DNA of 64,000 nucleotides from Arachnia rubra (GTDB taxonomy: Bacteria > Actinomycetota > Actinomycetes > Propionibacteriales > Propionibacteriaceae), in the NCBI RefSeq assembly GCF_019973735.1, contig NZ_AP024463.1, forward strand, positions 2,480,001 through 2,544,000, read 5' to 3'. Positions within the stretch are counted from its first letter, which is position 1; every line of letters starts with the position of its first letter. The position numbers were made by a program, and so were the translations under genes. This document shows, in pieces, positions 1 through 29,661 of this stretch. The notes beneath the pieces were generated by a model, which saw only the letters and a program-made list of their open reading frames with translations, searched no databases and was not told the origin of the DNA.

Positions 1-2460
1 CCCCGGATCCTGCTGGCCGACGCCGTCGGGCTGGGCAAGACCCTGGAGATCGGCATGATCCTGGCCGAGCTGATCCGGCGCGGCCGGGGTGAGCGGATCC
101 TCGTGGTGACCCCGCGCCACGTGCTGGAGCAGATGCAGCACGAGCTGTGGACGCGGTTCGCGATCCCGTTCGTGCGTCTCGACTCGCAGGGTGTGGCGCG
201 GGTCAAGCAGAAGCTGCCGGCCAGCCGGAACCCGTTCACCTATTTCCGCCGGGTCATCATCTCCATCGACACCCTCAAACAGGAGCGGTTCATCCACGAC
301 CTGCGCCGTCACCGCTGGGACGCCGTCGTGATAGACGAGTCGCACAACGTGACGAACTCCGAGACGCAGAACAGCCGGCTCGCGAGCGTCCTCGCACCGC
401 AGACCGACGCGCTGCTGCTGGCGTCCGCCACCCCGCACAACGGGAAGGCCAGCTCGTTCGCGAACCTGATCCGGCTCCTGGACCCGACCGCGGTCAGCGG
501 TGACGGGGAGCTCGACCTCGACCAGGTCAGGCAGCTGACGATCCGGCGGCACCGCCACAGCCCCGAGGTCGCCGAGGAGGTGGGCGCCGACTGGGCCGAA
601 CGCCGCGAACCCGACAACCGGCTCGTGCCCGCCTCCGCCGCCGAGAATGCCCTCACCGACGAGCTGGTCGCCACGTGGCTGTATCCGGCTTCTGGTGTCA
701 GCCCCTACTCCGGCAGCGGCAGGACGCTGTTCCCCTGGACCCTGGCCAAGGCCTTCCTCTCGTCGCCGGCCGCGCTGCACGAGACCATCACCAGCCGACT
801 CTCCCGCCTCGGCAACACGGCAGCTGCCTACACCGAAGCCACCGCCCTGCGACGCCTGGACGAGCTCAACAAAGCCTGCGACGCCTCGTCGGCGAAATAT
901 GACGAGCTGCTGCGCTACCTGAGGGGCATCGGTGTCAGCGCTGCCTCGCCGGTCAGGGCGGTGGTGTTCAGCGAGCGCGTCGCGACCCTCGGCTGGCTCG
1001 CTGACCGCCTCACCCGCGACCTGCGGCTCAAGCCGGACCAGGTCGAGGTCCTGCACGGCGGCCTGGCCGACGATGCCCAGCAGGAGATCGTGGAGAGTTT
1101 CAAGCAGGAGCACTCCCCCATCCGGCTCCTGATCACGGGGGACGTGGCCAGTGAGGGCGTCAACCTGCACCGGCAGTGTCACCACCTGATCCACTTCGAC
1201 ATCCCCTGGTCGCTGATCCGCATCGAGCAGCGCAACGGCCGCATCGACCGGTACGGGCAGCGGCGGCGTCCGGAGATCACGACCCTGCTGCTCGACCTCG
1301 CCAGCCCGCGGTTCGCGGGCGATGTGCGGGTGCTGGCCAGTCTCGTCCGCCGCGAGCATGAGGCGCACCTGGCGCTGGGTGACGCGGCGAGTCTGATGGG
1401 CCGCTACAGCGTCGCCGACGAGGAGGAGGCGATCCGGCAGGTCCTGGCGGGGGCCAGGGAGTTCGACGAGGTGGTGGCGGATCCCGCCTCCGCCGGTGAC
1501 GATGCTGAGGACTGGCTCCAGCAGCTCCTCGACTCGCCGCCCGCGCAGGAGGCCGCTGTCCGGCAGGCGGAGGAGCAGCGGCTGTACGAGCGTCCCGTCG
1601 ACTTCCTGCGCGACGCGCTGCGCGAGTACTACCCCAACCCGGAGGAGGCGCCGTCGGGACGCGACCAGGGCGGTGTCGCGTGGCGCGAGCATCCGGCCCA
1701 GCACCTGGTGGAGTTCACCCCGCCCGCGGACCTGCGGCAGCGGCTGGAGGTGCTGCCCAAGGGCTATCTGACGGAGCGGACGGTGCTGGAGCGGCTTCGC
1801 CTGGTGACCGACCGGGGCATCGCGAGGACTCTCCTGGAGGCTGCGCTCAGCGACCCTACCGGCTCCTCCTGGCCGGAGGCCCACTTCCTGGGGCCGCTGC
1901 ATCCCGTCCTGGACTGGGCCGCGGACCGTGCCCTGGCGCGGCTGTCGCGCAACGAGATCTTCGCCGTCCGCGGTGACGTCGATGCCCCGCGGGTGCTGCT
2001 GAACGGCACCCTGCTCAACCGCCGCGGCCAGGTGGTGGCGTCGTCTTGGCTGGCTGCCCGCTTCGAGCTCACCCAGCCGATGGTGACCCCGTATGCCTCG
2101 GCTGGCCAGATGCTCGCGGACGCCGGGCTGGTGACCGAGCGCATGAATCCCGGGCCGGTGGAGCTGCCCGGCCGCGACCTCATCGGCCCCGCCGTCGAGG
2201 CCGCGGAGGGGCATCTGGACAGGACTATGGTCGCGGCCCGGGAGGACGTCGAACGCCGCGTCGCCGCCTGGGTGCGGCGCGCGGAGACCTGGCAGGCCGA
2301 GGCCGACGCCCTCATCCAGCGCGGCGCGGTGCGGCAGCGCCGCAGCCTGGTGGAGCAGCAGGAACGCTTGAGCCGCGATATGAGTCCCGACCGGCAGCTG
2401 GTGCGGCCGCTGCTGGTGGTGCTGCCCGACGACACCCTGGAGGCGACCGATGGCCGATAG
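1..2460 (+). CDS. SNF2-type DEAD/DEAH helicase, DrmD-like (5' partial)
   Basis: The reading frame is open from base 1, so the start lies outside the window. The first codons already encode the Walker A motif (LADAVGLGKT). Further motifs are DESH (about nt 331-345), ASATPHNGK (about nt 424-450) and the C-terminal helicase motif QRNGRIDRYGQ (about nt 1227-1260). A long C-terminal part follows the helicase core. This is a superfamily 2, SNF2-like ATPase expected to translocate on double-stranded DNA. Layout and the adjoining giant adenine methyltransferase resemble DrmD of class 1 DISARM. The next gene starts inside this one (11-base overlap), so the two are translationally coupled. The helicase call is firm; DrmD membership is inference from architecture and context. 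Confidence 0.8.
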   Translation, partial: PRILLADAVGLGKTLEIGMILAELIRRGRGERILVVTPRHVLEQMQHELWTRFAIPFVRLDSQGVARVKQKLPASRNPFTYFRRVIISIDTLKQERFIHDLRRHRWDAVVIDESHNVTNSETQNSRLASVLAPQTDALLLASATPHNGKASSFANLIRLLDPTAVSGDGELDLDQVRQLTIRRHRHSPEVAEEVGADWAERREPDNRLVPASAAENALTDELVATWLYPASGVSPYSGSGRTLFPWTLAKAFLSSPAALHETITSRLSRLGNTAAAYTEATALRRLDELNKACDASSAKYDELLRYLRGIGVSAASPVRAVVFSERVATLGWLADRLTRDLRLKPDQVEVLHGGLADDAQQEIVESFKQEHSPIRLLITGDVASEGVNLHRQCHHLIHFDIPWSLIRIEQRNGRIDRYGQRRRPEITTLLLDLASPRFAGDVRVLASLVRREHEAHLALGDAASLMGRYSVADEEEAIRQVLAGAREFDEVVADPASAGDDAEDWLQQLLDSPPAQEAAVRQAEEQRLYERPVDFLRDALREYYPNPEEAPSGRDQGGVAWREHPAQHLVEFTPPADLRQRLEVLPKGYLTERTVLERLRLVTDRGIARTLLEAALSDPTGSSWPEAHFLGPLHPVLDWAADRALARLSRNEIFAVRGDVDAPRVLLNGTLLNRRGQVVASSWLAARFELTQPMVTPYASAGQMLADAGLVTERMNPGPVELPGRDLIGPAVEAAEGHLDRTMVAAREDVERRVAAWVRRAETWQAEADALIQRGAVRQRRSLVEQQERLSRDMSPDRQLVRPLLVVLPDDTLEATDGR

Positions 2461-5400
2461 CGACGCACTCCTGATCGTCGAGGACTGGATCAGCGAGCAC
2501 TACTTCACCACCGACGCCGACCGCGAGTCGTTCCGCGCCCAGGTGCTGGCGCGTGCCAAGCAGTGGAAGTCCGCCAGCGGCCAGACCACCGAGTCCCGGT
2601 TCACCGCCACCCGCTCCAGCCTGGCTGCCGGCCTGGCGGCCCTCTACAGCGACGATGATCCCAGCGCCGCCGCGGCCGACGCCATCCACGCCGAGCTGCT
2701 GCGGATCCTCGGCTACGTTCCCGGCCCCTACGAGACCGAGGTCAGCGGGCCGGTGCGGTGGCTTCGCTCCCCCAGTCTGCCCACCACACTCGCTGTCGTG
2801 GCGGCCCGGCCCGCGGCAGCCCTGGAGGACCTGTTCGCCAAGGACGCCCCGACCCTCGCCGAGCCTTTCGTCACCGACTCCCTGGACGAGATCGTCTCGG
2901 CGTCGCGGCTGGTCAGTCACCTGTTCCTGGCCGACGACCAGGTGCGGTTCGCGCTGATCCTGGCGGGACGGTGGCTGGTGGTGGCGGAGGCGTCGCGCTG
3001 GCCGGAGGGCCGCTACCTGGCCGTCGACATCCAGACAGTGGCCGAGCGCGGCGACGCCCGCCGCGGCGGCGAGATCCAGCGCGCGCTGACGGCCCTCGAT
3101 GCCGAGTCGCTGGCGCCTGACGCCGAGGGTGACATCTGGTGGGACGGGGTGCTGGAGGAGTCGGTGCGGCACACCGTCGGGGTGTCGGCGGATCTGCGGG
3201 AGGGGGTGAGGACCTCCATCGAGATCATCGCGAACGAGGTGGTGGACCGGCGGCGCGCCCGCGGCCTGGCGCCCCTCCCGGCGGCGGACGCACAACCGCT
3301 GGCGCTGCAGTCGCTGCGGTTCCTCTACCGCATCTTGTTCCTCCTCTACGCGGAGGCTTCGCCGCAGCTGCGGATCCTGCCGGTCGGTGACCCCGACTAC
3401 GCCCGCGGCTACTCCCTGGACCGGCTGCGGGAGCTGATCCAGGTGGAGCTGACCTCGGCGTCTCTGCAGGGGACGCATCTGTACGAGTCGCTGGGGGTGC
3501 TGTTCCGGCTCGTCAACCACGGCCACAGCCCGCGGGGCGATGGCGGCATCCAGCGTGGCCTGGAGTTCCAGGGGTTGCGCGCCGACCTGTTCCAGCCCGG
3601 GGCGACGGCCCTCATCGACGAGGTGGGCCTGGGCAATGGTGCTCTGCAGGAAGTGCTGCGGCGGCTGCTGCTCAGCAGGGAGCGGGCCGGGCGGGAGCGC
3701 GGTTTCATCTCCTATGTGGAGCTGGGCATCAACCAGCTGGGCGCCGTCTATGAGGGGTTGATGAGCTACAGCGGCTCGTTCGCCACCGAGGATCTGTACG
3801 AGGTCGCGCCCGACGGCAACCCGGAGAAGGGGTCGTGGGTGGTGCCGGTGCGACGCTGCGAACACCTCCGCGAGGGCGACTTCGTCACCGACACCGACCC
3901 GGTCACCGGGCAGCGAACCCGCCGCCGCTACGGTCGCGGCCAGTTCGTGTTCCGGCTGTCCGGGCGGGAGCGGCAGCGTTCCGCGTCGTACTACACCCCC
4001 GAGGTGCTGACCCGCTTCACGGTCTCCCAGGCCCTCGCGGAGCTTCTCGGCGACGACCTGCCCGCCGAGCGCATCCTCTCACTGACGGTGTGCGAGCCGG
4101 CGCTCGGGTCGGGGGCGTTCGCCATCGAGGCGACCCGCCAGCTGGCTGAGGAGTATCTGCGCCGCCGGCAGGAGGAGCTGGGCGTGCGGATCGACCCCGA
4201 CGACTACGCCGCCGAGTTGCAGCGCGTCAAGGCGTACATCGCGCTGCACAACGTCTATGGGGTGGATCTGAATGCCACCGCGGTGGAGTTCGCGGAGATC
4301 ACGCTGTGGCTGGACACCATGGCCCCTGGCCTGGCTGCGCCGTGGTTCGGGCTCAGGCTACAGCGCGGCAACTCCCTCGCCGGGGCCTCCCGCGCCTGCT
4401 ACACGCGGGCGCAGGTGAATGACAGAACCTGGCTGACTACCCCGCCGGCGGCGGTGCCGCTGACTGACATCGCTGAGCGGGTCGCGCAGAACCGGCAGGA
4501 GCTGAGCGGTGTCGATGGACGCATCCACCACTGGTTGCTGCCCGCCGCGGGGTGGGGTGCGACGGCGGAGTCCAAGGAGGCCAAGGCACTCGTCCCGGAG
4601 CGGGTCAAGCGGCTCAAGGCGTGGCGGCGAGGCCTCAAGACCAAACCGTCGAAACAGCAGCTGAACAAGCTGGTGGCGATCGCCCACCAAGCCGACGAGC
4701 TGTGGGCTCTGGCCTACCGCCGGCTGCACGTCGCCGAGCAGGAGTCTGCCCGCGACATCCCATTGTTCGGGCGGGAGCCATCGGGGCACGGGTCACGGGT
4801 CACGCGGGAGCAGATTGAACAGAGCCTCGCCGACGAGAACGGGGCCTACCGCCGGCTGCGGCGCATGATGGACGCGTGGTGTGCGCTGTGGTTCTGGCCG
4901 CTCACCGGCCGGGAGGTGGAGCCACCGACCCTGGGCCAGTGGATCACCGCGGCGGAAGGCATCCTGGGAGCCGAGCGCCCAGCAAGGGAGAAACACGCCC
5001 TGCCCGGCCAGGAGCAGCTGACCCCCACCGACGCCTGGACCGCGCTGGCCGACCAGGAAGACTTCGTCCTCATCAGCGGCAGCGCCCGGCCTGTCGAGGA
5101 GGTCCTTGAGGAGCATCCCTGGCTCAAAGTCTGCGAACAGGTCGCAGCCCGGCAGGGCTTCTTCCACTGGCAGCTGGACTTCGCCACCGTCTTCGGCCGC
5201 GGCGGCTTCGACCTCCAAGTCGGCAACCCACCCTGGGTGAGGCCCGACGTGGACATCGAGGCTCTGCTTGCCGAGGGGGATCCCTGGTGGCAGCTGGCGC
5301 TCAAGCCCTCCGAGGCCGCCAAACGCGAGAAACGAGCCGAGTCCCTGGCCCTTCCTGGAGTCGCCGATTCTGTGCTCGACGGCGAAAACGAGATCATCGC

Positions 5401-7066
5401 CCTCCGCGAATTCGTCTCCGACATCACCACCTACCCCATCCTCAGCGGACTCCGCCCAGACCTCTATCGCTGCTTCATGGCACGCACCTGGAAGCACATC
5501 TCAAAACAAGGTGTCATAGCCTTGCTGCATCCGGAAACCCACTTCACTGATGAGAACGCAGGTCTTCTCCGCAAAGAAGTTTATGAACGATTGCGACGAC
5601 ACTGGCAATTCGGCAACGACTTGAAGCTTTTCGCAGAAATAGATAACCACAACTCCTACGGCGTACACATTTATGGGGCCAGTAACTCCAACATCAATTT
5701 TATTCAGGCAGCTAACCTATATCATCCTGAAACAGCAGAGCGCTCCTTCCACCACGATGGATCCGGGGAAGAGCCTGGAGCCAAACATGAAGGGCACTGG
5801 GACCAGCGTCCACATGCCGCCCGCCTTCAGCATGTAACGATTGAGACTCTTGAGATGTGGCGGGACCTCCTCGAACCACCAAACAGCCCCGCATCTCGGA
5901 CACGAATGCTGTACACCGTCAATCGCACTGCGGCCAGGGTGCTGGCGAAGCTTGGGACAGCGCCCCGAGTGGGTTCTCTTGGGCTTGAATTCTCGGCTGG
6001 CTGGAACGAGAAGACCGACCGTGTAAAGGGGCGTTTTATCCAGGAATGGGGACGAGTTGACTCCTGGGATGAGGCGATCCTGCAGGGACCACATATTTTC
6101 GTAGGCAACCCGGCTTCCAAATCACCCAATTCCACGCTCAAGTCAAACAAGGACTGGTCCCCTATAAACCTGGAAATCCTCGCCCCTGATGCCCTGCCCG
6201 TCACCGCCTACAAACCCGCTGGCAGCCGCGAGGAGTACGACACCAGGTACGGAGACTGGAAGACCGGACCAGTCCGAGACCACTACCGGGTCGCCTGGCG
6301 CGCCATGGCGGCTAATCGCGGTGAACGCACCCTCATACCAGCCATCATTCCCCCAGGAGCTACGCACGTACACACTGTCAGTTCCCTAGGAACTGGAAAT
6401 ATGCCACGAGATCTAGTCATAGTTGCTGGTTCCTTGTCAACGTTGCTCAATGATTTCGCGGTGCGATCTTCACCAAAAAGCGCAATCACCATGGATGTCA
6501 TTCGTCGACAAGCAATCCCACCCCTGGACCATCCGCTGCTGCCTCGGCTTCTTCTGCGGACTCTGAGGCTGAATTGCCTCACGGATGCCTATGCCGATGT
6601 GTGGGAGGAGGTCTGGGATCCGGTGTTCGCGGAAGATGAGTGGCTGCTGCCTCCGGGGTATGAGGGTGCTCCGCGTATGGGTGATGTCGGCTCGCGGTGG
6701 ACTCCGGCGACGCCGCTGCGCCGGGACATCGACCGCCGCAATGCCCTGGTCGAGATTGACGCGCTGATGGCCACGATGCTCGGCGTCACGGCCGATGAGT
6801 TGTGCACCATCTACCGCACCCAGTTCGCGGTCCTCCACGGCTACGACCAGACCAGCTACATCTTCGACGCCAACGGCCGCATCGTCCCGAACCCGGTCCT
6901 GGTCGCCTGGCGCAAGAAGGGCGGCCGCATCACCCAAGAGGAACGCACCCACCCCCACCCAGGCGGCAAGACCTACACCTACGACCTCCCCTTCGCCCCA
7001 AGAAACCGCGAAACCGACTTCCGAACAGCCATAACCGCCCTCCGGTCCAAGCAGAAAGGTCACTAG
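2450..7066 (+). CDS. Large N6-adenine DNA methyltransferase, DrmMI/PglX-like
   Basis: This is a 1538-residue protein. The SAM-binding motif I region (CEPALGSGAF) is near residue 550 and the amino-methyltransferase motif IV NPPW near residue 925. That order is typical of Eco57I/PglX-type adenine methylases. About 540 residues precede the catalytic core, and residues about 1000-1370 probably hold target recognition. It would methylate host DNA so that partner helicases attack only unmodified DNA. The ATG at 2450 overlaps the end of the helicase gene. The DNA from about 5490 to 6560, covering the putative recognition region, is visibly more AT-rich than the rest of the gene, suggesting a swapped domain. 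Other possible assignments are BREX PglX or a stand-alone type IIG-like enzyme. No nuclease motif was recognised. Confidence 0.82.
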   Translation: MADSDALLIVEDWISEHYFTTDADRESFRAQVLARAKQWKSASGQTTESRFTATRSSLAAGLAALYSDDDPSAAAADAIHAELLRILGYVPGPYETEVSGPVRWLRSPSLPTTLAVVAARPAAALEDLFAKDAPTLAEPFVTDSLDEIVSASRLVSHLFLADDQVRFALILAGRWLVVAEASRWPEGRYLAVDIQTVAERGDARRGGEIQRALTALDAESLAPDAEGDIWWDGVLEESVRHTVGVSADLREGVRTSIEIIANEVVDRRRARGLAPLPAADAQPLALQSLRFLYRILFLLYAEASPQLRILPVGDPDYARGYSLDRLRELIQVELTSASLQGTHLYESLGVLFRLVNHGHSPRGDGGIQRGLEFQGLRADLFQPGATALIDEVGLGNGALQEVLRRLLLSRERAGRERGFISYVELGINQLGAVYEGLMSYSGSFATEDLYEVAPDGNPEKGSWVVPVRRCEHLREGDFVTDTDPVTGQRTRRRYGRGQFVFRLSGRERQRSASYYTPEVLTRFTVSQALAELLGDDLPAERILSLTVCEPALGSGAFAIEATRQLAEEYLRRRQEELGVRIDPDDYAAELQRVKAYIALHNVYGVDLNATAVEFAEITLWLDTMAPGLAAPWFGLRLQRGNSLAGASRACYTRAQVNDRTWLTTPPAAVPLTDIAERVAQNRQELSGVDGRIHHWLLPAAGWGATAESKEAKALVPERVKRLKAWRRGLKTKPSKQQLNKLVAIAHQADELWALAYRRLHVAEQESARDIPLFGREPSGHGSRVTREQIEQSLADENGAYRRLRRMMDAWCALWFWPLTGREVEPPTLGQWITAAEGILGAERPAREKHALPGQEQLTPTDAWTALADQEDFVLISGSARPVEEVLEEHPWLKVCEQVAARQGFFHWQLDFATVFGRGGFDLQVGNPPWVRPDVDIEALLAEGDPWWQLALKPSEAAKREKRAESLALPGVADSVLDGENEIIALREFVSDITTYPILSGLRPDLYRCFMARTWKHISKQGVIALLHPETHFTDENAGLLRKEVYERLRRHWQFGNDLKLFAEIDNHNSYGVHIYGASNSNINFIQAANLYHPETAERSFHHDGSGEEPGAKHEGHWDQRPHAARLQHVTIETLEMWRDLLEPPNSPASRTRMLYTVNRTAARVLAKLGTAPRVGSLGLEFSAGWNEKTDRVKGRFIQEWGRVDSWDEAILQGPHIFVGNPASKSPNSTLKSNKDWSPINLEILAPDALPVTAYKPAGSREEYDTRYGDWKTGPVRDHYRVAWRAMAANRGERTLIPAIIPPGATHVHTVSSLGTGNMPRDLVIVAGSLSTLLNDFAVRSSPKSAITMDVIRRQAIPPLDHPLLPRLLLRTLRLNCLTDAYADVWEEVWDPVFAEDEWLLPPGYEGAPRMGDVGSRWTPATPLRRDIDRRNALVEIDALMATMLGVTADELCTIYRTQFAVLHGYDQTSYIFDANGRIVPNPVLVAWRKKGGRITQEERTHPHPGGKTYTYDLPFAPRNRETDFRTAITALRSKQKGH

Positions 7067-7067
7067 T

Positions 7068-9240: not shown

Positions 9241-9241
9241 T

Positions 9242-9266
9242 GTTGCTACGACCCTATGACACCACC
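9242..9266 (-). repeat. IS30 right terminal inverted repeat
   Basis: This is the right end of the element, beginning GTTGCT and ending TGACACCACC on the plus strand. It is immediately followed by ACC, the second copy of the target duplication. Confidence 0.85.
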
Positions 9267-18483: not shown

Positions 18484-18486
18484 CTT

Positions 18487-19954: not shown

Positions 19955-20298
19955 ACCCCAGGATGATACCAGTAAAATAACCAAAACAGCAACCGTTAGA
20001 CTGAGCCCATCACGAGCGGGAGCAGAGCTGACTGCATCCGATCTTGCAGGGGCGCTCCGCTTTCTGGCGCCATATCCTCAGGAAGCGAGAACGTTGACGA
20101 TGCTCAACACAAAGACCCGTTCAAACCAGGTCTAACACCACGGTGAGCAGCGATTCCCACGGTAACCAGCGCTTTCGGAAACCCTTAATTCACCTTGAGC
20201 ACGGACAGACGGCTCACGCTTCTTCAGGCTCTGCAACTACCTCGCCGTCGTACTCCCTCGATATGCTCTTCCCCAGCCGATGTCAAAAGGAACCAACG
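19955..20298. other. Divergent intergenic region before the DUF1998 helicase
   Basis: This 344-base stretch has no credible gene. The TATCAT box for the minus-strand operon lies at its left end, and a TAGACT box (about 19997-20002) points toward the helicase, leaving a leader of nearly 290 bases. No riboswitch or strong palindrome was recognised. Confidence 0.4.
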
Positions 20299-23200
20299 AT
20301 GGGTGAGTTGCTGCCGGGCCCGCAGGCGCAGCGTCTGCGCGAGGGCATCCTGGACTATCTCACAACCACCTTCGCGCTCGCTGAGCCCGCTGCCCGCAGT
20401 GCTCTGCGGGCGTTCCTCGCTGACGAGGACTCGGGCATGTTCAAGGGCCCGTATCTCAAGACCGGCATGCCCTTCCGGGCTGATCCGCGGCGGGCAGCGC
20501 TCGGCTGGCTGCCGCCTGGCTTCAGGCCCTACGCCCACCAGGCCGAGGCCTTCACCCGTCTCAGCAGCCGCGACGGACGGCCGCAGCCCACCCTGGTGAC
20601 CACCGGCACCGGTTCCGGGAAAACCGAGGCCTTCCTCTACCCCATCATCGACCACTGCCTGCGGGCCCGCCGCTACGGCGTCCCCGGCGTCAAAGCCCTC
20701 ATCCTCTACCCGATGAACGCCCTCGCCAGCGACCAGGCCGCTCGTCTCGCCAAGCTGCTGTGTCCCGCTGACGCGCCAGACAGCCGCGCCCTCGGCGGCA
20801 TCACCGCCGCCATCTATACCGGAGAGCAGGAGGAGAGCCGGCCCCGGGTCACGCCGGAAGGGCTCATCACCGACCGCTCCGTCATCCGCGACGACCCACC
20901 GGACATTCTGCTGACCAACTACAAGATGCTTGACCAGCTGCTGCTGCGCGCCGAGGACCAGGCCCTGTGGCGGAACTCAGCCGACTCGCTCACCTACCTC
21001 GTCCTCGACGAGTTCCACACCTACGACGGGGCGCAGGGAACGGACGTCGCCATGCTGCTGCGGCGTCTCGGCCTGGCGCTCAAGTCACACTGGCCGGCCC
21101 GCGGCAGCTCCCGCGACAACCACAGCCCCGCGGAGTGGGAGCGACCCCTCGGGAAGATCACCCCGGTCGGCACCTCGGCCACACTCGGACCGAGCGGCGA
21201 CGCCGCCGACCCCACCGCCAGCATCATCGACTTCGCCACTCAGGTCTTCGGCGAGAGGTTCGATGCCGGCAGCGTCGTCAAAGAGCAGCGCATGAGCGCC
21301 GAGGACTGGCAGTCGCAGTCCGGCACCGGCGAGAAGACGCCCGCGAGAACTCCGCTGAAGATCACCCCGGACATGGCGGCCAAGCTCCTGCGCGACCTGG
21401 ACGGCACGCCCGAGCGGGAGCGCGCTGCCGTCCTGCTGCGGGGAATGTTCGAGTTCCCGGCCGGAGACGTCACCGGCGTATCCCGGGAGGACATGCAACA
21501 CCTGGTCCGGAGCCACCCCTTCATTCAGGATTTCCTGGAGGAGACGCGCCAGGCCACCCACCTCACCGAGCTGACCGAAACCCTCCTGCCCGGTGAACCG
21601 GCGACCCTGAAGGATCGCCGCGCCTTCCTCGTCGAGCTGCACGCGGCACTCGGGCAGCTGCGCGCCGCAGGTCCGGACGGCCGCCCGGACCGGGGCATGC
21701 CGACCACAGAGGTCCATCTCTGGATCCGCGAGGTGACACGGCTGGACCGCTATGCGGAGGTCGCCGCCCGGTTCCGCTGGTACGACGACGGGCCCGCCGC
21801 ACCGGCCGACGAGACCCAGGACTCGGGCATCGCGTTCCCAGCTATCTACTGCCGGATGTGCGGGCGCTCAGGCTGGGGCGTCTCACTGGCCCCTGTCGGG
21901 TCGTCCCTGGCGGCCAGCGACGAGGGCATCCGCCGCGACCACGCGGCCCGGGAAGGACGGTTCCGCGCGCTCCTGCACGCCCCCGCCGAGACTCAGGAGA
22001 TGCTGCCAGGGGTGGTCTGGTTCGATCCCGGAAACCGTGAGCTCACCTCCCGCGACCCCGACGACCAGGCCCTGCGCGAAGGCCGGGTGCTGCGGGTCCA
22101 GACCCATACCGGCCCCGACGCCGACCAGCTCTCCCGTAAGGACACCTGCCCCGGATGCCAGCAAAGCGATGCCATCCGCTTCATGGGCAGCGCCGTCGCC
22201 ACCCTGCTGTCGGTGTGCCTGTCATCCCTGTTCACCGAAGGGGCCATCTCCTCTAGGGAGAAGAAGGCCCTGGTCTTCACCGACTCCGTGCAGGACGCCG
22301 CCCACCGGGCCGGATTCGTCACGGCCCGCTCCCACACCCTGACGCTGCGCTGCGTACTGGCCGAGGCCACCGACCAGCCCCGCACCCTGCCGGAGCTCGT
22401 GGAGCGGGTCATCGAGATCGCAGGCACAGACCCGGTCCGCCGGTATCGCCTGCTGCCGCCGGATCTCGCGCATCGCGACGACCTGCGGTCCTTCTGGCAG
22501 CCGGACGCCACCCGCCGGACCCCGTCCCCAATCACGCGGCGTCTCCTGTTCGATGCCGCTCTCGAATTCGGCCTGGTCAGCGGCTATGGCCGCACGCTGG
22601 AGCGCACCGGCACCAGCAGCGCACACATCGAGGCAGGCACACCGGAGGAGCTCGCCGCCCTGGCGGGAGACGTGGTCAAGAACCTTGACCAGGCACTGTT
22701 CGAGGCAGACATCACCCCGGCGCAGCTCGTCGCGTGGGTCCGGGGTGTGCTAGAGCGGATGCGCACCCGGGGCGCCATCGCCCATCCCTGGCTCCGGCGC
22801 TATGTCAAACGCGACGGCAATCGCTGGGACATCTGGGGTGGGCGTCCCACAGGCATGCCAGCTTTCCCCAAGGGCCGCACCGCTCCGGCCTTCCCGCGGG
22901 CCGTCGGGTCGCGCATCGACCCGGACCGCACGCTCCTGGATCCCGTCGCCTCGCCCCAGTCGTGGTACGCCACCTGGACCAGGCGCTGCCTGGGCATCAC
23001 CACAGGCGCCCCGGTGCTGGCGCGGGCGCTGCTGGACGAGCTCACCGCACACGAGATCCTGCAGGCGAGCGCCACCGACTCCGGCGGCCGGGTCTATGCC
23101 CTGCCCGGCGAGCGTGTCGTCGTGACCCGCATCGACGACACAGACCTGGCCGAGGGGCGGCACAGCCTGCGCTGCACCGCCTGTCACAGCATGTTCCCGG

Positions 23201-26200
23201 TCAGCCGGGACACCGGCGACCAGCTGGCGGGCGCCCCGTGCCTGCACCAGTCCTGCACCGGGACCCTCACCCGCGAGCCAGGCGATCCGGGCAATTTCTA
23301 CCGGCATCTCTACCGCTCTGGCGACGCCCGCCAGATCGTCGCCCGTGAACACACGAGTCTTCTCGACGCGCAGCAGCGCCTGGACTATGAGAACGGATTC
23401 AAGCGCTCCGGCGACGACCCGTCCGCCCCGAATGTACTGGTGGCCACCCCCACCCTGGAGATGGGAATCGACATCGGCGACCTGTCAGCGGTTTTCCTGG
23501 CGTCGCTGCCCCGTCGTGTCGCCAACTACGTGCAGCGCGTTGGCCGCGCGGGACGCTTGACCGGCAATGCCCTGGACATCGCCTTCGCCCGCGGCCGCGG
23601 CGAGGTGCTGTCACAGCTGGGCGATCCCCTTTCGCTGATCAACGGTGCGGTCACTCCGCCGGCCACGTATCTCAGCGCCGAGGAGATCCTGCGCCGCCAG
23701 TACCTGGCCCACCTCGCCGACCGCCTAGCCCGCGACCCGAAGGCGATACATCCCCGCACCACCGCCAAGGCCCTGGAGCTGCCGGGGCCGGGGACCTTCC
23801 TGGGGCAGCTGATCGAGCTGGCGCGCACAGACGCGGAAGACACCCTCGCAGGTTTCCTGGCCAGCTTTGACGTCGGCGAAACCTCGGCGCTCCGGACTGA
23901 GACCATCGAGGCGATGCGCAGCTGGGCCATCCCCGGCGACGACGGCTTCGCCCTGGCGGAGACCATCATCAAGGCTGCCCGCGCCTGGCACGAGCAGCGC
24001 ACCGAGCTGATGGAGCTGCGCGATGCCATCCAGCAGCAGCTGCCCGACTTAAGGTCCAGGGAGGCCGACAGCAAGGAGGACGCCCAGGCGCTGCGCGAGG
24101 CCGAGGCGGAGCTGCGTCTCATCGGGCGCCAGCTCAGCGAAGCCAGGCACGAGTACTGGGTGGCGGCGCTGGAGAGGCAGGGGCTGCTGCCCAACTACAG
24201 CCTTATCGACGACTCCGTCCAGCTCGACGTCACCATGACCTGGAGCGACTCCGAGACCGAGGAACGCCACCTGGAGGAGGGCTCCTACACCCGGCCGAGT
24301 GCCCGCGCCCTCACCGATTTCGCGCCCGGCGCCACGTTCTACGTCGGCGGCCACCAGATCAGCATCGACGCCGTCGACATCGGACCCCAGGGCAACTCCA
24401 TCGGGACCCTGAGGCTGTGCCCGCACTGCGGCTATGCTCAGGAGCTGGCCCGCCACGCCACCGGAGCGCAGCAGCACATCCGCTGCCCTCGCTGCGAACA
24501 GCCTGGCATCGGGGATCGCGGGCAGTGTTTCCGGAGCGTCGAGCTGACGAAGGTGTCGGCCTATGTGCGACGCGAGGAGTCGCGCATCGACGACCGGGCG
24601 GACGAACGCCAGCTGGCCGGGTTCACGGTGCTTGGCATCGCCGACATCGACCCGGACCGGGTCCAGCGGAGGTGGTTCACCAGCACCGGCATCGAATTCG
24701 CCTATCTGCGGCAGCTGGACCTGCGATGGCTGAACCTGGGACCTCGCCGCCACACCGCCGCCGAGCTGATGATCGCGGGGGAACGGATCAAGGCGCCGCT
24801 GTTTCGGATCTGCTCCAGCTGCGGTCACCTGGACCGAGGTGGCCTGGTCAACTCCCGCGACGAGCACCGTCCCTGGTGCAAGCACCGCAACGACCCGGAC
24901 GAGCACATCGAGAATGTGCTGCTGCACCGTCGCCTCACCACGGAGGCGATCCTGCTGGGACTGCCCAAGGAGGTCGCCTACGGACACGATCCGTTCGCCC
25001 TGCCGAGCCTGATCGCCGCCATCCAGCTCGGCCTGCGGGAGTCCTACGGCGGAGCCCCGGACCACCTGGCCGCCTTGCAGGTCCGCGACCCGCGCACGCG
25101 ACGGGAGGCACTGCTGCTCCACGACCTGGTCCCGGGCGGCACCGGCTATCTCGCCGAGCTGGCGGATCCCGAGCAGCTGCGCACCGTGCTGCAGCGCGCC
25201 CACGACCGGCTCACCGGGTGCGGCTGTGCGGGCGAGGGCCGCCTGGCCTGTCACCGGTGCCTGCTGCCCTTCGCCGCCAGTAACCACCGGGACCTCACCT
25301 CCCGCTCCGTCGCCGCCCAGCACCTGGCCACGATGCTCGGATCCAGCTGGGAGATCAACGAGGAGCCCCGGCCGGCCGAGGACCCGGAGTCCTGGCTTGA
25401 GCAGCGGTTCCGGCGGGCTTTCGTGCGGCTCGCGGAGAAGCTGGGTGCCACCGTCACGCAACAGCCCGGGCTGTCCGGGAACACGATCTCCGTGTCACTG
25501 GGGAACCGTCGTTTCAAGCTGCAGCCGCAGGTCACTGTGCAGGACACCCGCCCGGACTTCCTGCTGTCCTCACCCGGCCTGCATGACGTCGCGATCTACA
25601 CCGACGGCCTGGCCTTCCATGCCTCACCTGAGATCGACCGGATCGCGGACGACGCCGCGAAGCGCTCGGGGCTGCGTGACCTCGGGATGGTTGTGCTGGC
25701 GGTCACCGCCGCTGACTTGGATGCCGACGACGACGGCATCCAGCCGGCAGCCCCAGCCTGGTACCGGCCGGAGCTGGCGCAGCGGCTCAATGCCAAACCC
25801 CAGCTCCAGCACAACGACATCGCCCGGAAGGCGTTGACCGGTGGTCCGATAGCTTTCCTGGAGGCCTGGCTGCAGGGCATCGACGTCGCAAACCTGTCCC
25901 GTTTCGGCCATACCGTCCCGGTGCAGCTGTTCGCCGCCGGCAGGCCGCCTTCGGATCCGCTCGGGCACCAGGCAGTCGCGGCGCTGCCTGGTGACGACGT
26001 TAGGGTGTGGCGGCACGGCACGCTCGCCGTCGCCGTCGCGAAAGGACCACCGGGTGAGATGCCGTTGCATGCGGTCCTCGACGACACCGCCGACCTGGGA
26101 ACACCCGAAGCGCAGGACTCGTGGCGGGAGTGGCTGCGCCTGGCCAATGCTGTCGTATTGCTGCCGGTGCATCAGGCGCTGCTGAGTGCCGCGACCATGG

Positions 26201-26529
26201 CGGCCAAGACGGCTGGACGGCCGGCGGAGAGGACGAGCGTCCCCGTCGATCTGGTCCCGGGCTGGGTGCCGGTGGCCGCCGAGTTCGGCGGAGAGGAGAT
26301 GGCGCAGGTGCTGATCGGCCAGCTCAGCGCAGCCGGGGTCGAGCCACCGGATGGCGGGGTCGGACAGGAGCTGGGCGACGGCATCCCCTTCGACCTGGTG
26401 TGGGAGCAGGACCGGATCGCAGTGCAGCTCGATCCCTCGGCCGAGACGGTGTCGCTGCCGGGCTGGCGCGTACTGGCGCCCAAGGCCGATCTGATAGTCG
26501 CCGCCTGGAAGGAGCAGCGGAATGGCTGA
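20299..26529 (+). CDS. Giant DEAD/DEAH helicase with DUF1998, DrmAB/DruE-like
   Basis: This is a 2076-residue protein from ATG 20299, chosen because AAAGGAA lies 7 bases upstream and the extra N-terminal frame (to 20143) looks non-coding. Walker A is TTGTGSGKTEAF (about residue 103), followed by DEFH (about 236), VGTSATLG, and motif VI QRVGRAGR (about 1080). Several Cys pairs suggest zinc ribbons: CRMCGRSG, CPGCQQS, CTACHSMF, CPHCGYA with CPRCEQ, and CSSCGHL. DUF1998 lies near 1605-1660 (VPGGTGYLAEL and CHRCLLPF). A C-terminal RPDFLL...YTDGLAFH pattern resembles a PD-(D/E)xK nuclease fold, apparently without the Glu. Fused helicase-DUF1998 proteins occur in DISARM (DrmA plus DrmB) and Druantia (DruE). 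Which lineage this belongs to is unresolved. Confidence 0.82.
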   Translation: MGELLPGPQAQRLREGILDYLTTTFALAEPAARSALRAFLADEDSGMFKGPYLKTGMPFRADPRRAALGWLPPGFRPYAHQAEAFTRLSSRDGRPQPTLVTTGTGSGKTEAFLYPIIDHCLRARRYGVPGVKALILYPMNALASDQAARLAKLLCPADAPDSRALGGITAAIYTGEQEESRPRVTPEGLITDRSVIRDDPPDILLTNYKMLDQLLLRAEDQALWRNSADSLTYLVLDEFHTYDGAQGTDVAMLLRRLGLALKSHWPARGSSRDNHSPAEWERPLGKITPVGTSATLGPSGDAADPTASIIDFATQVFGERFDAGSVVKEQRMSAEDWQSQSGTGEKTPARTPLKITPDMAAKLLRDLDGTPERERAAVLLRGMFEFPAGDVTGVSREDMQHLVRSHPFIQDFLEETRQATHLTELTETLLPGEPATLKDRRAFLVELHAALGQLRAAGPDGRPDRGMPTTEVHLWIREVTRLDRYAEVAARFRWYDDGPAAPADETQDSGIAFPAIYCRMCGRSGWGVSLAPVGSSLAASDEGIRRDHAAREGRFRALLHAPAETQEMLPGVVWFDPGNRELTSRDPDDQALREGRVLRVQTHTGPDADQLSRKDTCPGCQQSDAIRFMGSAVATLLSVCLSSLFTEGAISSREKKALVFTDSVQDAAHRAGFVTARSHTLTLRCVLAEATDQPRTLPELVERVIEIAGTDPVRRYRLLPPDLAHRDDLRSFWQPDATRRTPSPITRRLLFDAALEFGLVSGYGRTLERTGTSSAHIEAGTPEELAALAGDVVKNLDQALFEADITPAQLVAWVRGVLERMRTRGAIAHPWLRRYVKRDGNRWDIWGGRPTGMPAFPKGRTAPAFPRAVGSRIDPDRTLLDPVASPQSWYATWTRRCLGITTGAPVLARALLDELTAHEILQASATDSGGRVYALPGERVVVTRIDDTDLAEGRHSLRCTACHSMFPVSRDTGDQLAGAPCLHQSCTGTLTREPGDPGNFYRHLYRSGDARQIVAREHTSLLDAQQRLDYENGFKRSGDDPSAPNVLVATPTLEMGIDIGDLSAVFLASLPRRVANYVQRVGRAGRLTGNALDIAFARGRGEVLSQLGDPLSLINGAVTPPATYLSAEEILRRQYLAHLADRLARDPKAIHPRTTAKALELPGPGTFLGQLIELARTDAEDTLAGFLASFDVGETSALRTETIEAMRSWAIPGDDGFALAETIIKAARAWHEQRTELMELRDAIQQQLPDLRSREADSKEDAQALREAEAELRLIGRQLSEARHEYWVAALERQGLLPNYSLIDDSVQLDVTMTWSDSETEERHLEEGSYTRPSARALTDFAPGATFYVGGHQISIDAVDIGPQGNSIGTLRLCPHCGYAQELARHATGAQQHIRCPRCEQPGIGDRGQCFRSVELTKVSAYVRREESRIDDRADERQLAGFTVLGIADIDPDRVQRRWFTSTGIEFAYLRQLDLRWLNLGPRRHTAAELMIAGERIKAPLFRICSSCGHLDRGGLVNSRDEHRPWCKHRNDPDEHIENVLLHRRLTTEAILLGLPKEVAYGHDPFALPSLIAAIQLGLRESYGGAPDHLAALQVRDPRTRREALLLHDLVPGGTGYLAELADPEQLRTVLQRAHDRLTGCGCAGEGRLACHRCLLPFAASNHRDLTSRSVAAQHLATMLGSSWEINEEPRPAEDPESWLEQRFRRAFVRLAEKLGATVTQQPGLSGNTISVSLGNRRFKLQPQVTVQDTRPDFLLSSPGLHDVAIYTDGLAFHASPEIDRIADDAAKRSGLRDLGMVVLAVTAADLDADDDGIQPAAPAWYRPELAQRLNAKPQLQHNDIARKALTGGPIAFLEAWLQGIDVANLSRFGHTVPVQLFAAGRPPSDPLGHQAVAALPGDDVRVWRHGTLAVAVAKGPPGEMPLHAVLDDTADLGTPEAQDSWREWLRLANAVVLLPVHQALLSAATMAAKTAGRPAERTSVPVDLVPGWVPVAAEFGGEEMAQVLIGQLSAAGVEPPDGGVGQELGDGIPFDLVWEQDRIAVQLDPSAETVSLPGWRVLAPKADLIVAAWKEQRNG

Positions 26530-28780
26530 GAGCATGATCATCTTTCCGAGACAGAGCAGCAGGCTCGATGGGAGCCTCAATCAGAAGGTGATGGCCTTCC
26601 TGAACAAGCTGGCCACCGATGATGCGGCCGCGGGACTGCACATCGAGCGCATCCACAATGCCGCCGACCCGCGGGCCCGCACGGGCCGGGTGGACCTGAG
26701 CTACCGGGCCCTGCTGTTCAAGCTCACCGGGGAGAAGACCGCCTACGTCCTTCACGGGGTCTATCCCCACGACGAGGCCTACGAGGTGGCGGCGAAGACC
26801 CGCCTGAGCGTCAACCCGGTCAACGGGATCACGGACTTCGTCACCGCCGACCCCGCTCAGCCACCCCGCTACGAGGCTCCGGCGCAGGCCAGCGTGGCGG
26901 ACGGCCCCAGGCCGCTCATAGACTTCAGCGCGGAGGACCTGATCGTGTCGCTCGGCATCCCGCCCGAGGTCGCACGGACCGCCGTCAGGCTGACCACCCC
27001 GGAGACGGTCCGCGACTATGCCTGCACCTTGCCGGAATGGCAGGGCCTGGCGCTGGTGATGCTGGCCGGGGGCGAGTCCATCACCAGCGTCGGTGAGGAG
27101 CTCAAGATCTTCAAGGCCGACGAGGCCCCCGCGAACCTGGATCAGGCCGAGGCTGCGTTCAAGCAGTACGAGCAGTCCGATCTGGTCTCCGACCAGGTTC
27201 TTCTCGATGGCTTCGACAAGCCGGCTGCCCAGATGGGGTTCGCCAAGCTGGCCGGCGCCGAGGAGCTGCGTCGCGTCATCATGGAGGGCGACTTCTCCGC
27301 TTGGCGGGTGTTCCTGCACCCGCAGCAGCGCAACTGGGTGAATCGCGACTGGCGGGGCAGCTTCCGGCTGGGCGGCGGCGCTGGTACCGGCAAGACCGTC
27401 GTCGTGGTGCATCGCGGACGGCGGCTCGCCCGCCAGCACCCGGGTGCTCCCGTGCTGCTGACCACGTTCAACACCAATATCGCCGCGGAGCTGGACCGCA
27501 GCCTGCGCAGCCTGGACCCGGAGCTGGGACGGGCCAGCAGGCTGGGAGAGCCCGGGGCCTATGTCAAGGGCATCGACGCGCTGGCCAGCGAGGTCCTGCG
27601 GCAGGCCGGGCCGGGCATCATCGACGCATGCGCCGAGGTGCTCGGGGTGGGACGCAGCGACCTGCAGCGCCGCACCGCACGCAGCGCCTGGCGGGACGCC
27701 GTCGAGACGGCCGGCCAGGGGCTGCCCGAGCGGTTGCGCCGCGATGTTTTCCTGCAGTCGGAATACGAGATGGTGATCCTGCCGGCCCGCATCACCCGTG
27801 AGGAGGAATACCTGCGGCAGCCCCGTCCCGGCCGGGGGGTGCGGCTGAACCGGGCGGCTCGCCGGGCGGTGTGGGCGGTGGTGTCGGCCTACCGGGCCGC
27901 GGCCCTGCAGGATGACACCATCGATTTCGCGGAGGCGGCCATGATCGCCGCGACCCATCTGGAGCGCTCCGGCACAAGGCAGGCCCAGCATGTCCTCGTC
28001 GATGAGGGCCAGGACTTCAAACCCTGCCACTGGCACCTGGTGAGGGCCCTGGTCGCACCCCAGGACAACGACATTTTCATCGTCGAGGACTCGCACCAGC
28101 GGATCTACGGGAACAAGGTGGTGTTGTCGCATCACGGCATCCAGATCCGGGGCCGGGCCGCCAAGCTGCGGCTGAGCTACCGCACCACCGCCGAGAACCT
28201 GGAGTTCGCGGTGAGGATCCTCGAAGGGCACACGTTCACCGACTCGGATGGCCAGGAGGACTCCCTGGACGGTTACCTGTCCGCCCGCACCGGTCCGAGG
28301 CCGCAAGTCGAGAGCTGTCCCTCCCCCGCCGAGGAACTCGACTTCGCCGCCAGGACCCTCAGGAGCTGGCTCAGGGAGGACGGCGTCGCCCCGGAGACCC
28401 TGGCGATCCTGGTGCGGGACACCGCGGGCCGGGCCCGTGTGGTGGAGGGGCTCGCGCAGCATGGCATCGAGGTCCGGCCGCTGGACCGGGGCATCCCCCA
28501 CCCAGGGGCCCCAGTGGCGCTAACAATGCACCGCGCCAAGGGCACGGAATTCGCGAAGATCCTGCTGTTCGGCCTGTCCACCGGTTCCATCCCGATAAGG
28601 CTCGACGCCTACAAGTACGACACCGCCGAGTACGAGGATGCGATGCTGCGGGAGCGCTCCCTGCTCTACGTGGCTGCCTCCCGCGCCAGGGATGAGCTGG
28701 TGATCACCTATCACGGCAGCCCCAGCGAACTGCTCCCGCAGAGCCCGGCCGAGGTCCACAAACCCCAGCCTCTGCCCTAG
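26522..28780 (+). CDS. UvrD/Rep-like helicase with RelE-like N-terminal domain
   Basis: This is a 752-residue protein. Its ATG overlaps the DUF1998 helicase gene by 8 bases. Residues about 15-110 (HIERIHNAADPRARTGRVD, then YRALLFKLTG and HDEAYEVA) match the RelE/ParE toxin-fold pattern. A superfamily 1 ATPase follows: Walker A GGGAGTGKT (about 285), Walker B VLVDEGQDF (about 495), SYRTT, LTMHRAKGTEF and VAASRARDEL. RelE-like domains fused to UvrD helicases are known but their job is not. Translational coupling implies it works with the DUF1998 helicase. Confidence 0.82.
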   Translation: MAESMIIFPRQSSRLDGSLNQKVMAFLNKLATDDAAAGLHIERIHNAADPRARTGRVDLSYRALLFKLTGEKTAYVLHGVYPHDEAYEVAAKTRLSVNPVNGITDFVTADPAQPPRYEAPAQASVADGPRPLIDFSAEDLIVSLGIPPEVARTAVRLTTPETVRDYACTLPEWQGLALVMLAGGESITSVGEELKIFKADEAPANLDQAEAAFKQYEQSDLVSDQVLLDGFDKPAAQMGFAKLAGAEELRRVIMEGDFSAWRVFLHPQQRNWVNRDWRGSFRLGGGAGTGKTVVVVHRGRRLARQHPGAPVLLTTFNTNIAAELDRSLRSLDPELGRASRLGEPGAYVKGIDALASEVLRQAGPGIIDACAEVLGVGRSDLQRRTARSAWRDAVETAGQGLPERLRRDVFLQSEYEMVILPARITREEEYLRQPRPGRGVRLNRAARRAVWAVVSAYRAAALQDDTIDFAEAAMIAATHLERSGTRQAQHVLVDEGQDFKPCHWHLVRALVAPQDNDIFIVEDSHQRIYGNKVVLSHHGIQIRGRAAKLRLSYRTTAENLEFAVRILEGHTFTDSDGQEDSLDGYLSARTGPRPQVESCPSPAEELDFAARTLRSWLREDGVAPETLAILVRDTAGRARVVEGLAQHGIEVRPLDRGIPHPGAPVALTMHRAKGTEFAKILLFGLSTGSIPIRLDAYKYDTAEYEDAMLRERSLLYVAASRARDELVITYHGSPSELLPQSPAEVHKPQPLP

Positions 28781-28818: not shown

Positions 28819-28824
28819 GTCCGC

Positions 28825-29661
28825 ATGTTCTGCACCCTGACCGATGACTTCGATGCCGCCACCGTCGGAAGGATCCAGGCCCGGCTGGATGAGGTGGAGC
28901 TGGAGCATGGCGTCAGGGTGGTGTGGGCGGTCGAGTCGGGCAGCCGGGCCTGGGGTTTCCCCTCCCCCGACTCCGACTATGACTGCCGCTTCTTCTACAT
29001 ACGATCGTATGACGACTACGTCTCGCCGTGGCGGCCCCGCGATGTCATCGAGACCCCGCTCGATGACGTTCTCGACGTCAACGGCTGGGATCTCATCAAA
29101 GCCGTCCGGCTCGGAGCCAAAAGCAATGCGACCGTATTGGAGTGGTTGCGCTCGCCGCTGGTCTACCGCGGCCAGCCCGAGTTCGCGGAGGAGCTGCTTG
29201 AGCTGTGCAAAGGCCTGGTGAACTACGACGCGGTCCGAAACCACTATTTCCACACCGGCCGTTACGCCTGGGACCGGTCGGGCGTCACGAACGGCGAGGT
29301 CATCTCGCTGAAGAAGTTGTTCTATGCCATCCGTCCCGCGGCAGCCCTGCAGTGGATGCGCCTGCACGGCTCTGCCGTGCCACCGATGAACCTGGCGGCG
29401 CTGCTCGACGAGGCCCCACCCGCCCCTGACGTCTTGGAGGCGATCACGGCTCTAGTCGAAGCCAAGTCCGTCACCCGTGAACTCGGGAAGGGCATCGCAC
29501 CAGAGCCCATCCGCCGCTTCATCCAGCACGAATTCCAGCTGGCCGCCGAGACCAAGAGCGGACCACGCCACCCCGCCGCCGAAGCACGGGCCCAGGCATC
29601 CCAGGTCTTTATCGACCTAGTGAGGCGTTTCGCCCCCCACGCGAACGTCCCTGCCACATGA
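28825..29661 (+). CDS. Nucleotidyltransferase-fold protein, YcgL/RlaP-like
   Basis: This is a 278-residue protein. The motif ESGSRAWGFPSPDSDYDCRF contains the Gly-Ser and the Asp-x-Asp pair of the polymerase-beta nucleotidyltransferase fold, in the arrangement typical of the COG3541 (YcgL/RlaP) group. A helical C-terminal part follows. I chose ATG 28825 because of the promoter box just before it; a GTG at 28786 would add 13 residues. It follows the UvrD gene by 44 bases but has its own promoter. Members of this group are of uncertain function; a defence role here would be guilt by association. Confidence 0.7.
   Translation: MFCTLTDDFDAATVGRIQARLDEVELEHGVRVVWAVESGSRAWGFPSPDSDYDCRFFYIRSYDDYVSPWRPRDVIETPLDDVLDVNGWDLIKAVRLGAKSNATVLEWLRSPLVYRGQPEFAEELLELCKGLVNYDAVRNHYFHTGRYAWDRSGVTNGEVISLKKLFYAIRPAAALQWMRLHGSAVPPMNLAALLDEAPPAPDVLEAITALVEAKSVTRELGKGIAPEPIRRFIQHEFQLAAETKSGPRHPAAEARAQASQVFIDLVRRFAPHANVPAT

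What the first reader, a model, noticed from the sequence alone, without database searches (positions are those of the whole stretch)
1..29661. Composite helicase-methyltransferase-SIR2 defence island
A DrmD-like helicase and a DrmMI-like methylase are coupled, followed by a SIR2 NADase, while a 2076-residue DUF1998 helicase and a UvrD helicase with a RelE-like domain form a second coupled pair about 10 kb on. Class 1 DISARM has DrmD, DrmMI, DrmA, DrmB and DrmC; here DrmA and DrmB could be fused and DrmC replaced by a UvrD helicase and a SIR2 effector. That would be a variant not described to my knowledge.
Basis: partly seen in the sequence, partly recalled or inferred. Interest (0 to 1): 0.75.

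Follow-up and report, generated by a model that had tools for sequence, protein, structure and literature searches.

The report
ARMADA defence operon split by cargo
This is a four-gene bacterial anti-phage system of a recently described kind (ARMADA Type II) whose two halves have been pushed apart, at a joint that is also the usual insertion place in its relatives, by other genes, several of them defence genes.

Summary
The two helicase pairs are real and are one system, but not a new DISARM: they are armA-armB and armC-armD of ARMADA Type II (Bell et al. 2025 preprint, PMC12458937). Each protein matches the E. coli ATCC 8739 system over 86-97% of its length.

SIR2 is not a component. It is the front of a Dsr1-like gene broken by an IS30-type element. 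Dsr1-like relatives occur in 10 of 391 genomes and lie beside ARMADA only here.

What I did not find described is where cargo sits. Inserts over 500 bp lie at armB|armC in 15 of 71 loci, armA|armB in 1 of 80, armC|armD in 0 of 63 (p 2.6e-7). The insert state changed (gain or loss) at least five times on the ArmB tree. I judged 15 of 22 slots to hold a defence-type gene (GmrSD, OLD-like, reverse transcriptase, TIR, SIR2). The first cargo frame points along armB in 22 of 27. Function of the cargo is untested.

The parts
1..2460 (+). armA: BrxHII/RapA-like SNF2 helicase (last 819 of 943 aa; the gene begins 371 bases before the window)
   Evidence: PF00176 and PF00271, PADLOC DrmD/BrxHII-like; 36% over 840 columns to E. 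coli ATCC 8739 ArmA, 457 bits; DESH at residue 236, E. coli DEAH also at 236
2450..7066 (+). armB: PglX-like N6-adenine methyltransferase, 1538 aa, NPPW at 926, GSGAFA at 553
   Evidence: best PADLOC model is a type IIG one, PDLC03611, 1439 bits over the whole length; 34% over 1398 columns to E. coli ArmB, 679 bits; full-length orthologs at 56-71% in the order
7068..8195 (+). front part of a Dsr1-like SIR2 gene (cargo), starting 1 base after the armB stop
   Evidence: PF13289 E 6.4e-18; NF041818 Dsr1 model positions 1-290 of 1263
8196..9263 (-). IS30-type insertion element (family name recalled; transposase frame 8200-9240 on the - strand) that breaks the Dsr1-like gene
   Evidence: HTH_38 and rve; imperfect terminal inverted repeats, 15 of 20; this copy, 7 more full-length and 2 part matches at 99-100%
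9264..11696 (+). rest of the Dsr1-like gene (cargo), cut off from its SIR2 domain
   Evidence: NF041818 positions 612-1066; the two pieces lie next to each other in 8 of 9 relatives' loci, and in one open frame of 1199 and 1211 aa in L085 and L087
12693..13574 (-). cargo gene, 293 aa, no family match
14114..14974 (+). cargo gene with Abi_C domain (abortive-infection C-terminus)
   Evidence: PF14355 E 3.2e-14; AbiJ E 1.4e-5
17752..19984 (-). cargo: run of three frames, the 19142-19984 one of family TIGR04255
   Evidence: TIGR04255 138 bits (cut-off 30)
20299..26529 (+). armC: YprA/DruE-like DEAD helicase with DUF1998/MZB and a C-terminal Vsr-like nuclease, 2076 aa
   Evidence: 30% over 1916 columns to E. 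coli ArmC, 653 bits, against 111 bits (best piece) to E. coli Druantia III DruE; E1701, D1753, D1769, G1770, H1774, D1785, K1788, R1789 invariant in 17 of 17 aligned ArmC
26522..28780 (+). armD: GajB-like UvrD helicase with N-terminal RelE-like domain, 752 aa

Best explanation
The locus is an ARMADA Type II anti-phage system with all four genes open, whose armB|armC junction has been opened by about 13 kb of other genes. Most likely mechanism of the core (inferred from homology to the tested E. coli system): ArmB adds a self-marking methyl group to host DNA; ArmA translocates on or senses unmarked phage DNA; ArmC unwinds DNA and cuts it with its C-terminal Vsr-like nuclease; ArmD adds a second helicase and possibly an RNase-like RelE domain. 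The armB|armC junction is the usual landing place for extra genes in relatives, often stand-alone defence genes and usually added in line behind armA-armB so that they could be read with them, while armC-armD stay together. The Dsr1-like SIR2 gene was one such passenger and has since been broken by an insertion element. Shown here: gene content, open frames, active-site motifs, co-occurrence, position bias, repeated change of the insert state. Inferred: methylation as self-mark, order of action, co-transcription of cargo.
For: Four of four proteins align with E. coli ATCC 8739 ArmA-D over 86, 86, 87 and 97% of their length, and ArmC is far closer to ArmC than to Druantia III DruE (653 against 111 bits). 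Residues mutated in the E. coli work (PMC12458937) have counterparts here: GLGKT (seen) and DExH of ArmA, NPPW of ArmB, GSGKT and DExH of ArmC, GTGKT and DExQ of ArmD. RelE-type fold for ArmD 1-115. Vsr-like residues invariant in 17 of 17 ArmC. armB and armD: 41 and 46 of 391 genomes, 38 shared. Inserts over 500 bp: armB|armC 15 of 71, armA|armB 1 of 80, armC|armD 0 of 63. The insert state needs 7 changes (gains or losses) on the ArmB tree, at least 5 forced by starred branches. First cargo frame co-directional in 22 of 27, p 0.0015. Cargo families. Dsr1-like pieces colinear on one model and adjacent in relatives; near-identical IS copies.
Against: No activity was measured. Identity to the tested E. 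coli proteins is only 30-36%. PADLOC's best model for armB is a type IIG restriction-methyltransferase over the whole length (1439 bits), so the pair armA-armB alone would be filed differently by that library. In this window armC is about 13 kb from armB, and it is not shown that armC-armD are still expressed: an element conserved before armC in several relatives scores only 8 of 13 here, which 36% of random windows reach. The insert state is clustered on the tree (7 changes against 17 in shuffles), so much of the 15 is shared ancestry. Exceptions to the position rule: G251 has 2.4 kb at armB|armC, 4.8 kb at armC|armD and no armA match in the stretch fetched; L168 has the order C-D-A-B; L103 has a gap at armA|armB as well. 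In 5 of 22 slots no defence-type family was seen and 2 were unclear.
Confidence: 0.88

Rival explanations
1. Same system, but the cargo bay is neutral: armA-armB and armC-armD are two transcription units in cargo-bearing loci, so the junction between them is merely the place where insertion does no harm, and the cargo is ordinary defence-island traffic with no functional link.
For: A promoter-like element lies before armC in several same-genus loci with inserts (10 or more of 13 letters in 6 of 8 intact loci and 2 of 3 stubs; 36 of 5000 random windows; the element was derived from these same sequences); cargo mostly differs from locus to locus; armC 5-prime stubs in G203, G089 and G119 point to recombination debris.
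Against: First cargo frames are co-directional in 22 of 27 and several start within a few bases of the armB stop, e.g. 1, 1, 7, 9, -4, -4 and 11 bases by longest-frame starts, which resembles recruitment into the operon; in the 56 compact loci the gap between the matched parts of armB and armC is 95 bp or less but for one of 136 bp, i.e. apparently one operon.
Confidence: 0.5
2. The SIR2 gene and other cargo are dedicated auxiliary effectors of ARMADA: they fire when ARMADA is blocked or triggered, as proposed for the nucleases embedded in BREX loci.
For: In-line position behind armB; recurrence of particular types, GmrSD in 6 of 22 slots and AAA_15/AAA_21 (OLD-like, my label) ATPases in 4 of 22, kinds also reported inside BREX loci (PMC12839542 section 35, first part).
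Against: In this window the SIR2 gene is broken; of 10 genomes with Dsr1-like relatives, 8 have no armB ortholog and G039 has both about 700 kb apart; 56 of 71 loci have no cargo there; the E. coli system works with the four arm genes alone on a plasmid (PMC12458937).
Confidence: 0.25
3. One reading: a five-part DISARM variant in which SIR2 and UvrD replace DrmC.
For: DISARM-like helicase and methyltransferase matches.
Against: Curated DISARM cut-offs not reached; no SIR2 match above 60 bits in 20 same-order stretches, 80 named loci or 16 further stretches searched with both pieces, though some stretches hold only part of a slot; better match to ARMADA II.
Confidence: 0.02

Closest known systems
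ARMADA Type II (E. coli NCTC 12900 and ATCC 8739; Bell et al. 2025, PMC12458937)
   Same: Four genes in the same order with the same domain make-up; homology over 86-97% of every protein; NPPW, Walker and DExx motifs; Vsr-like end of ArmC; RelE-like start of ArmD
   Different: 30-36% identity; here 13 kb of other genes lies between armB and armC, whereas the 60 rows listed of 518 matching E. coli genomes run across that junction without an insert (458 rows not listed)
DISARM Class 1
   Same: DrmD-like helicase, DrmMI-like methyltransferase, a DrmA/DrmB-like helicase
   Different: DrmA and DrmB parts in one YprA/DruE-like protein; no DrmC phospholipase-D nuclease among the proteins scanned; curated DrmD and DrmA cut-offs not met
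Druantia Type III
   Same: ArmC is a relative of DruE
   Different: ArmC scores 111 bits to E. coli DruE against 653 to ArmC; no DruH match
Dsr1 (defence-associated sirtuin 1)
   Same: SIR2 piece and C-terminal piece match one Dsr1 model in order
   Different: Gene broken by an IS30-type element; neither piece reaches the model's cut-off
Auxiliary effectors embedded in BREX loci (Rakesh and Krishnan 2026, PMC12839542)
   Same: GmrSD, OLD-ATPase, Schlafen and PD-(D/E)XK genes placed among core genes of a methyltransferase-based system
   Different: There described for BREX and BREX-related systems; here ARMADA II, with one preferred junction

Membership tests
ARMADA Type II | gene order BrxHII-like helicase, PglX-like methyltransferase, YprA-like helicase, UvrD-type helicase, all co-directional | tested here: met
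   the order holds, with other genes inserted between the second and third
ARMADA Type II | homology over most of the length to E. coli ATCC 8739 ArmA-D | tested here: met
   457, 679, 653 and 305 bits; 86, 86, 87 and 97% of the length
ARMADA Type II | ArmC closer to ARMADA than to Druantia | tested here: met
   653 against 111 bits; no YprA-family tree was built
ARMADA Type II | Vsr-type nuclease residues at the C-terminus of ArmC | tested here: met
   residues invariant in 17 of 17 including E. coli; the Vsr name is from PMC12458937, and no profile or fold search was run on this part
ARMADA Type II | RelE-like domain at the N-terminus of ArmD | tested here: met
ARMADA Type II | non-abortive anti-phage activity needing all four genes | not testable with these tools
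   shown for E. coli only
DISARM Class 1 | DrmD above curated cut-off | tested here: not met
   309 bits, cut-off 610
DISARM Class 1 | separate DrmA and DrmB genes | tested here: not met
   DEAD and MZB in one protein; DrmA 19 bits, cut-off 999
DISARM Class 1 | DrmC phospholipase-D nuclease | tested here: not met
   none among the 15 proteins scanned
Druantia Type III | DruH partner | tested here: not met
   no DruH match among 15 proteins scanned with PADLOC (for proteins with long lists the best 25 rows were shown)
Dsr1 | one intact protein above the NF041818 cut-off (1400 bits) | tested here: not met
   pieces of 153 and 56 bits, colinear, split by an insertion element

The most novel reading that the evidence does not exclude
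ARMADA Type II has a built-in accessory bay: the armB|armC joint is an evolved docking place where stand-alone defence genes are captured in line with armA-armB and serve as exchangeable back-up effectors (type IV restriction, OLD-type, reverse-transcriptase, TIR, SIR2), swapped by recombination that leaves armC 5-prime stubs, in a way parallel to but separate from BREX.
Probability: 0.25. Interest if true: 0.65.

Novelty: new variant of a known kind. Interest (0 to 1): 0.48.

Why it matters
It shows ARMADA Type II, tested so far in E. coli, in a broad actinobacterial set with a clear anatomy, and that one joint of the operon repeatedly takes in other genes, many of them defence genes. If cargo works with the core, scanning this joint is a way to find new defence genes (several slots hold proteins without any family match) and makes the back-up-effector idea from BREX testable in a second system.

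Tried and rejected
DISARM, Druantia and BREX as homes for the whole set: rejected on curated cut-offs and on bit scores against E. coli ArmC and DruE. SIR2 as a core part: rejected; searches with both Dsr1 pieces gave no match above 60 bits in 20 same-order stretches, 80 named loci and 16 further stretches. A clean target-site duplication around the IS30-type element: not evident by eye. An armC promoter in this window: the element of the relatives is at chance level here. armC or armD remnants inside the window: none at E 1e-3. ArmD search in the class: 92 of 394 genomes at E 1e-60, many of them lower-scoring relatives; not used for counts. The full-length ArmD model has pTM 0.43 and was not used; the N-terminal part was modelled alone. 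Literature: seven searches and a term search in the ARMADA preprint gave no description of cargo at the armB|armC joint; its supplements could not be read, so this is not proof of absence. Read: PMC12458937, abstract, parts 1-4 of 8 and the figure legends; PMC12839542, abstract, passages and the first part of section 35; PMC11980606, passages only; other papers as search listings.

Counts and what was dropped. armC was seen after armB in 71; the 9 others were left out of the 71: L104, L120, L150, L152, L157, L178 end on a contig edge, L143 and L173 show no armC within 10 kb, L168 has another gene order. Gaps are between tblastn-matched parts, not gene ends. Order set: 391 genomes; of 38 with both armB and armD, 8 (G089, G278, G338, G164, G245, G286, G312, G389) have them on different contigs; of the other 30, one search counts 19 compact and 11 extended, but G264 should be dropped because its armB there is a fragment on the other strand, leaving 19 of 29 compact and 10 of 29 extended: 8 of 8 in the window's genus group and 2 of 21 elsewhere. 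In G255 the armB is itself broken. The ortholog thresholds (armB 50% identity and 140 bits; armD 44% and 200 bits) were set by eye and the lists typed by hand. Cargo families: 30 proteins from 21 slots were given to Pfam, plus the window's own, so 22 slots and not every frame of each; by my own judgement a defence-type family was seen in 15 of 22 (in L128 only AAA_21, in L143 a helicase-nuclease), unclear in 2 (L164, L157), none in 5 (G068, G119, L176, L179, L173). Slots L143, L157 and L173 have no armC in view. The 27 slots include 5 without armC in view, and G251 and G095. Gene starts in cargo are longest-frame guesses. The control windows were drawn from the same stretches that hold the element.
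Full report
The window lies at 2480001-2544000 of a one-contig 3.32-Mb genome.

Anatomy. Four genes of the finding are open and co-directional. armA (943 aa) begins 371 bases before the window and ends at 2460. armB 2450-7066 overlaps it by 11 bases. armC 20299-26529 (2076 aa from the start at which most relatives align) and armD 26522-28780 overlap by 8 bases. Between the pairs lie about 13.2 kb, AT-richer than the arm genes on average, with a Dsr1-like SIR2 gene, an IS30-type element, an Abi_C gene, a TIGR04255 gene and several frames without a clear family match. Downstream are RlaP and then ordinary chromosome genes (DUF4032, cysteinyl-tRNA synthetase, SpoU methylase, SHMT).

One system, not two. 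An armB search in 391 genomes of the order and an armD search in the same 391 give 41 and 46 genomes with orthologs, 38 shared (Fisher p 3e-41). On one contig and one strand are 29: 19 at 6.3-6.8 kb, the room for armC, and 10 further apart. Twenty-kilobase stretches of 20 genomes show armA, armB, armC and armD side by side in 12.

The SIR2 gene. The 393-aa frame matches positions 1-290 of the Dsr1 model and the 817-aa frame positions 612-1066. Between them sits a 1068-bp IS30-type element with eight full-length copies in the genome, this one included, and two part matches, all at 99-100%. Relatives of the C-terminal piece occur in 10 of 391 genomes. In 8 of the 9 other loci the SIR2 piece lies before it on the same strand; in G039 and G160 both lie in one open frame of 1199 and 1211 aa, with 6 to 12 bases between the matches. 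None of the nine lies beside ARMADA: eight genomes have no armB ortholog and G039 has it about 700 kb away. The gene is therefore a passenger, and here a broken one. It starts one base after the armB stop.

A preferred joint. A scan of named genomes with the ArmB alignment gave a capped list of 80 loci from many actinobacterial families. Where the neighbouring gene is in view, inserts over 500 bp lie at armB|armC in 15 of 71, at armA|armB in 1 of 80 and at armC|armD in 0 of 63 (Fisher, first against the other two, p 2.6e-7). In the window's genus group 8 of 8 usable genomes are extended, against 2 of 21 elsewhere in the order. On the ArmB tree (85 rows, 75 labelled, quick method) the insert state needs 7 changes, at least 5 forced by starred branches; changes are gains or losses. 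It is also clustered (17 in shuffles), so inheritance and repeated change are both at work. Exceptions: G251 with gaps at armB|armC and armC|armD and no armA match in the stretch fetched, L168 with order C-D-A-B, L103 with an extra gap at armA|armB. In E. coli, 518 genomes match a 4-kb stretch across the joint; the 60 rows listed run across it without an insert, 458 are not listed.

What the slots hold. Pfam on 30 cargo proteins from 21 slots and on the window's own, with PADLOC on ten, shows GmrSD type IV restriction enzymes (6 slots), AAA_15/AAA_21 ATPases that I call OLD-like (4), reverse transcriptases of three defence types (UG32, a retron-VII-like one with a DUF3800 neighbour, DRT4), AIPR, a ThsB-like TIR, Schlafen, Sa_NUDIX and PD-(D/E)XK genes. 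I judged a defence-type family to be present in 15 of 22, unclear in 2, absent in 5. Cargo is mostly unrelated between loci apart from transposase-like frames and distant GmrSD and ATPase kinship; the exception is a GmrSD plus nuclease pair shared by G089 and G203 at 97% (733 residues) and 89% (225 residues). The first cargo frame points the same way as armB in 22 of 27 (p 0.0015), in several within a few bases of its stop. Stubs of the armC start occur in the inserts of G203 and G119 and, across a contig break, upstream of armC in G089, a sign of recombination at that place. A promoter-like element is found before armC in 6 of 8 intact same-genus loci (51-56 bases before in five, 27 by my coordinate in G119) and in 2 of 3 stubs, but not clearly here or in G170.

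Reading. The core most likely works as in E. coli: ArmB marks self DNA, and ArmA, ArmC and ArmD act on unmarked phage DNA, with no need for cell death (non-abortive action shown for E. coli, PMC12458937; the rest inferred). The joint between armB and armC is where other genes, often defence genes, are taken up. Whether they are recruited effectors, as proposed for nucleases embedded in BREX loci (PMC12839542, first part of section 35), or tolerated passengers, cannot be told from sequence. I put more weight on tolerated passengers.

Noticed in passing
window 8196-9263 and other places in G000: An IS30-type element of 1068 bp: eight full-length copies at 99-100%, two of them close together near 780-783 kb, and two part matches near 1.067-1.069 Mb that look like one copy split in two.
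   Followed up: partly
window 28786-29661: RlaP nucleotidyltransferase (PF10127, 225 bits) starts 5 bases after armD; no RlaP match above 60 bits in the 80 named loci, which often reach only 1-2 kb past armD.
   Followed up: partly
G000:C1:3063672-3064130: A second adenine methyltransferase in the same genome, open frame 1419 aa, 41% to ArmB over residues 498-648; possibly another BREX- or DISARM-like system.
   Followed up: no
L168: Micrococcales bacterium 31B has the pairs in the order armC-armD-armA-armB, against the strict order stated in the preprint.
   Followed up: no
L184, L188, L046, L183: Stubs of the armC 5-prime end in G203, G089 and G119, and an armD 3-prime fragment beyond armD in G203.
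   Followed up: partly
L036 and L183: G089 and G203 share a GmrSD (97%) and PD-(D/E)XK (89% over 225 residues) pair in the armB|armC region.
   Followed up: no
L163: A record titled Planococcus sp. carries an ArmB that falls among Microbacterium on starred branches; the record is probably misnamed or mixed.
   Followed up: no
L046:12272-13984, L179:14843-16087, L176:14603-15352: Slot proteins without any Pfam or PADLOC match at E 1e-3; candidates for undescribed defence genes.
   Followed up: no
window 17752-19984: Run of three frames on the minus strand: a TIGR04255 gene (138 bits), a frame with a weak HTH_23 match and one without a match.
   Followed up: no
L039: In G062 the armA reading frame is in two pieces (316 and 655 aa), so that ARMADA copy may be damaged.
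   Followed up: no
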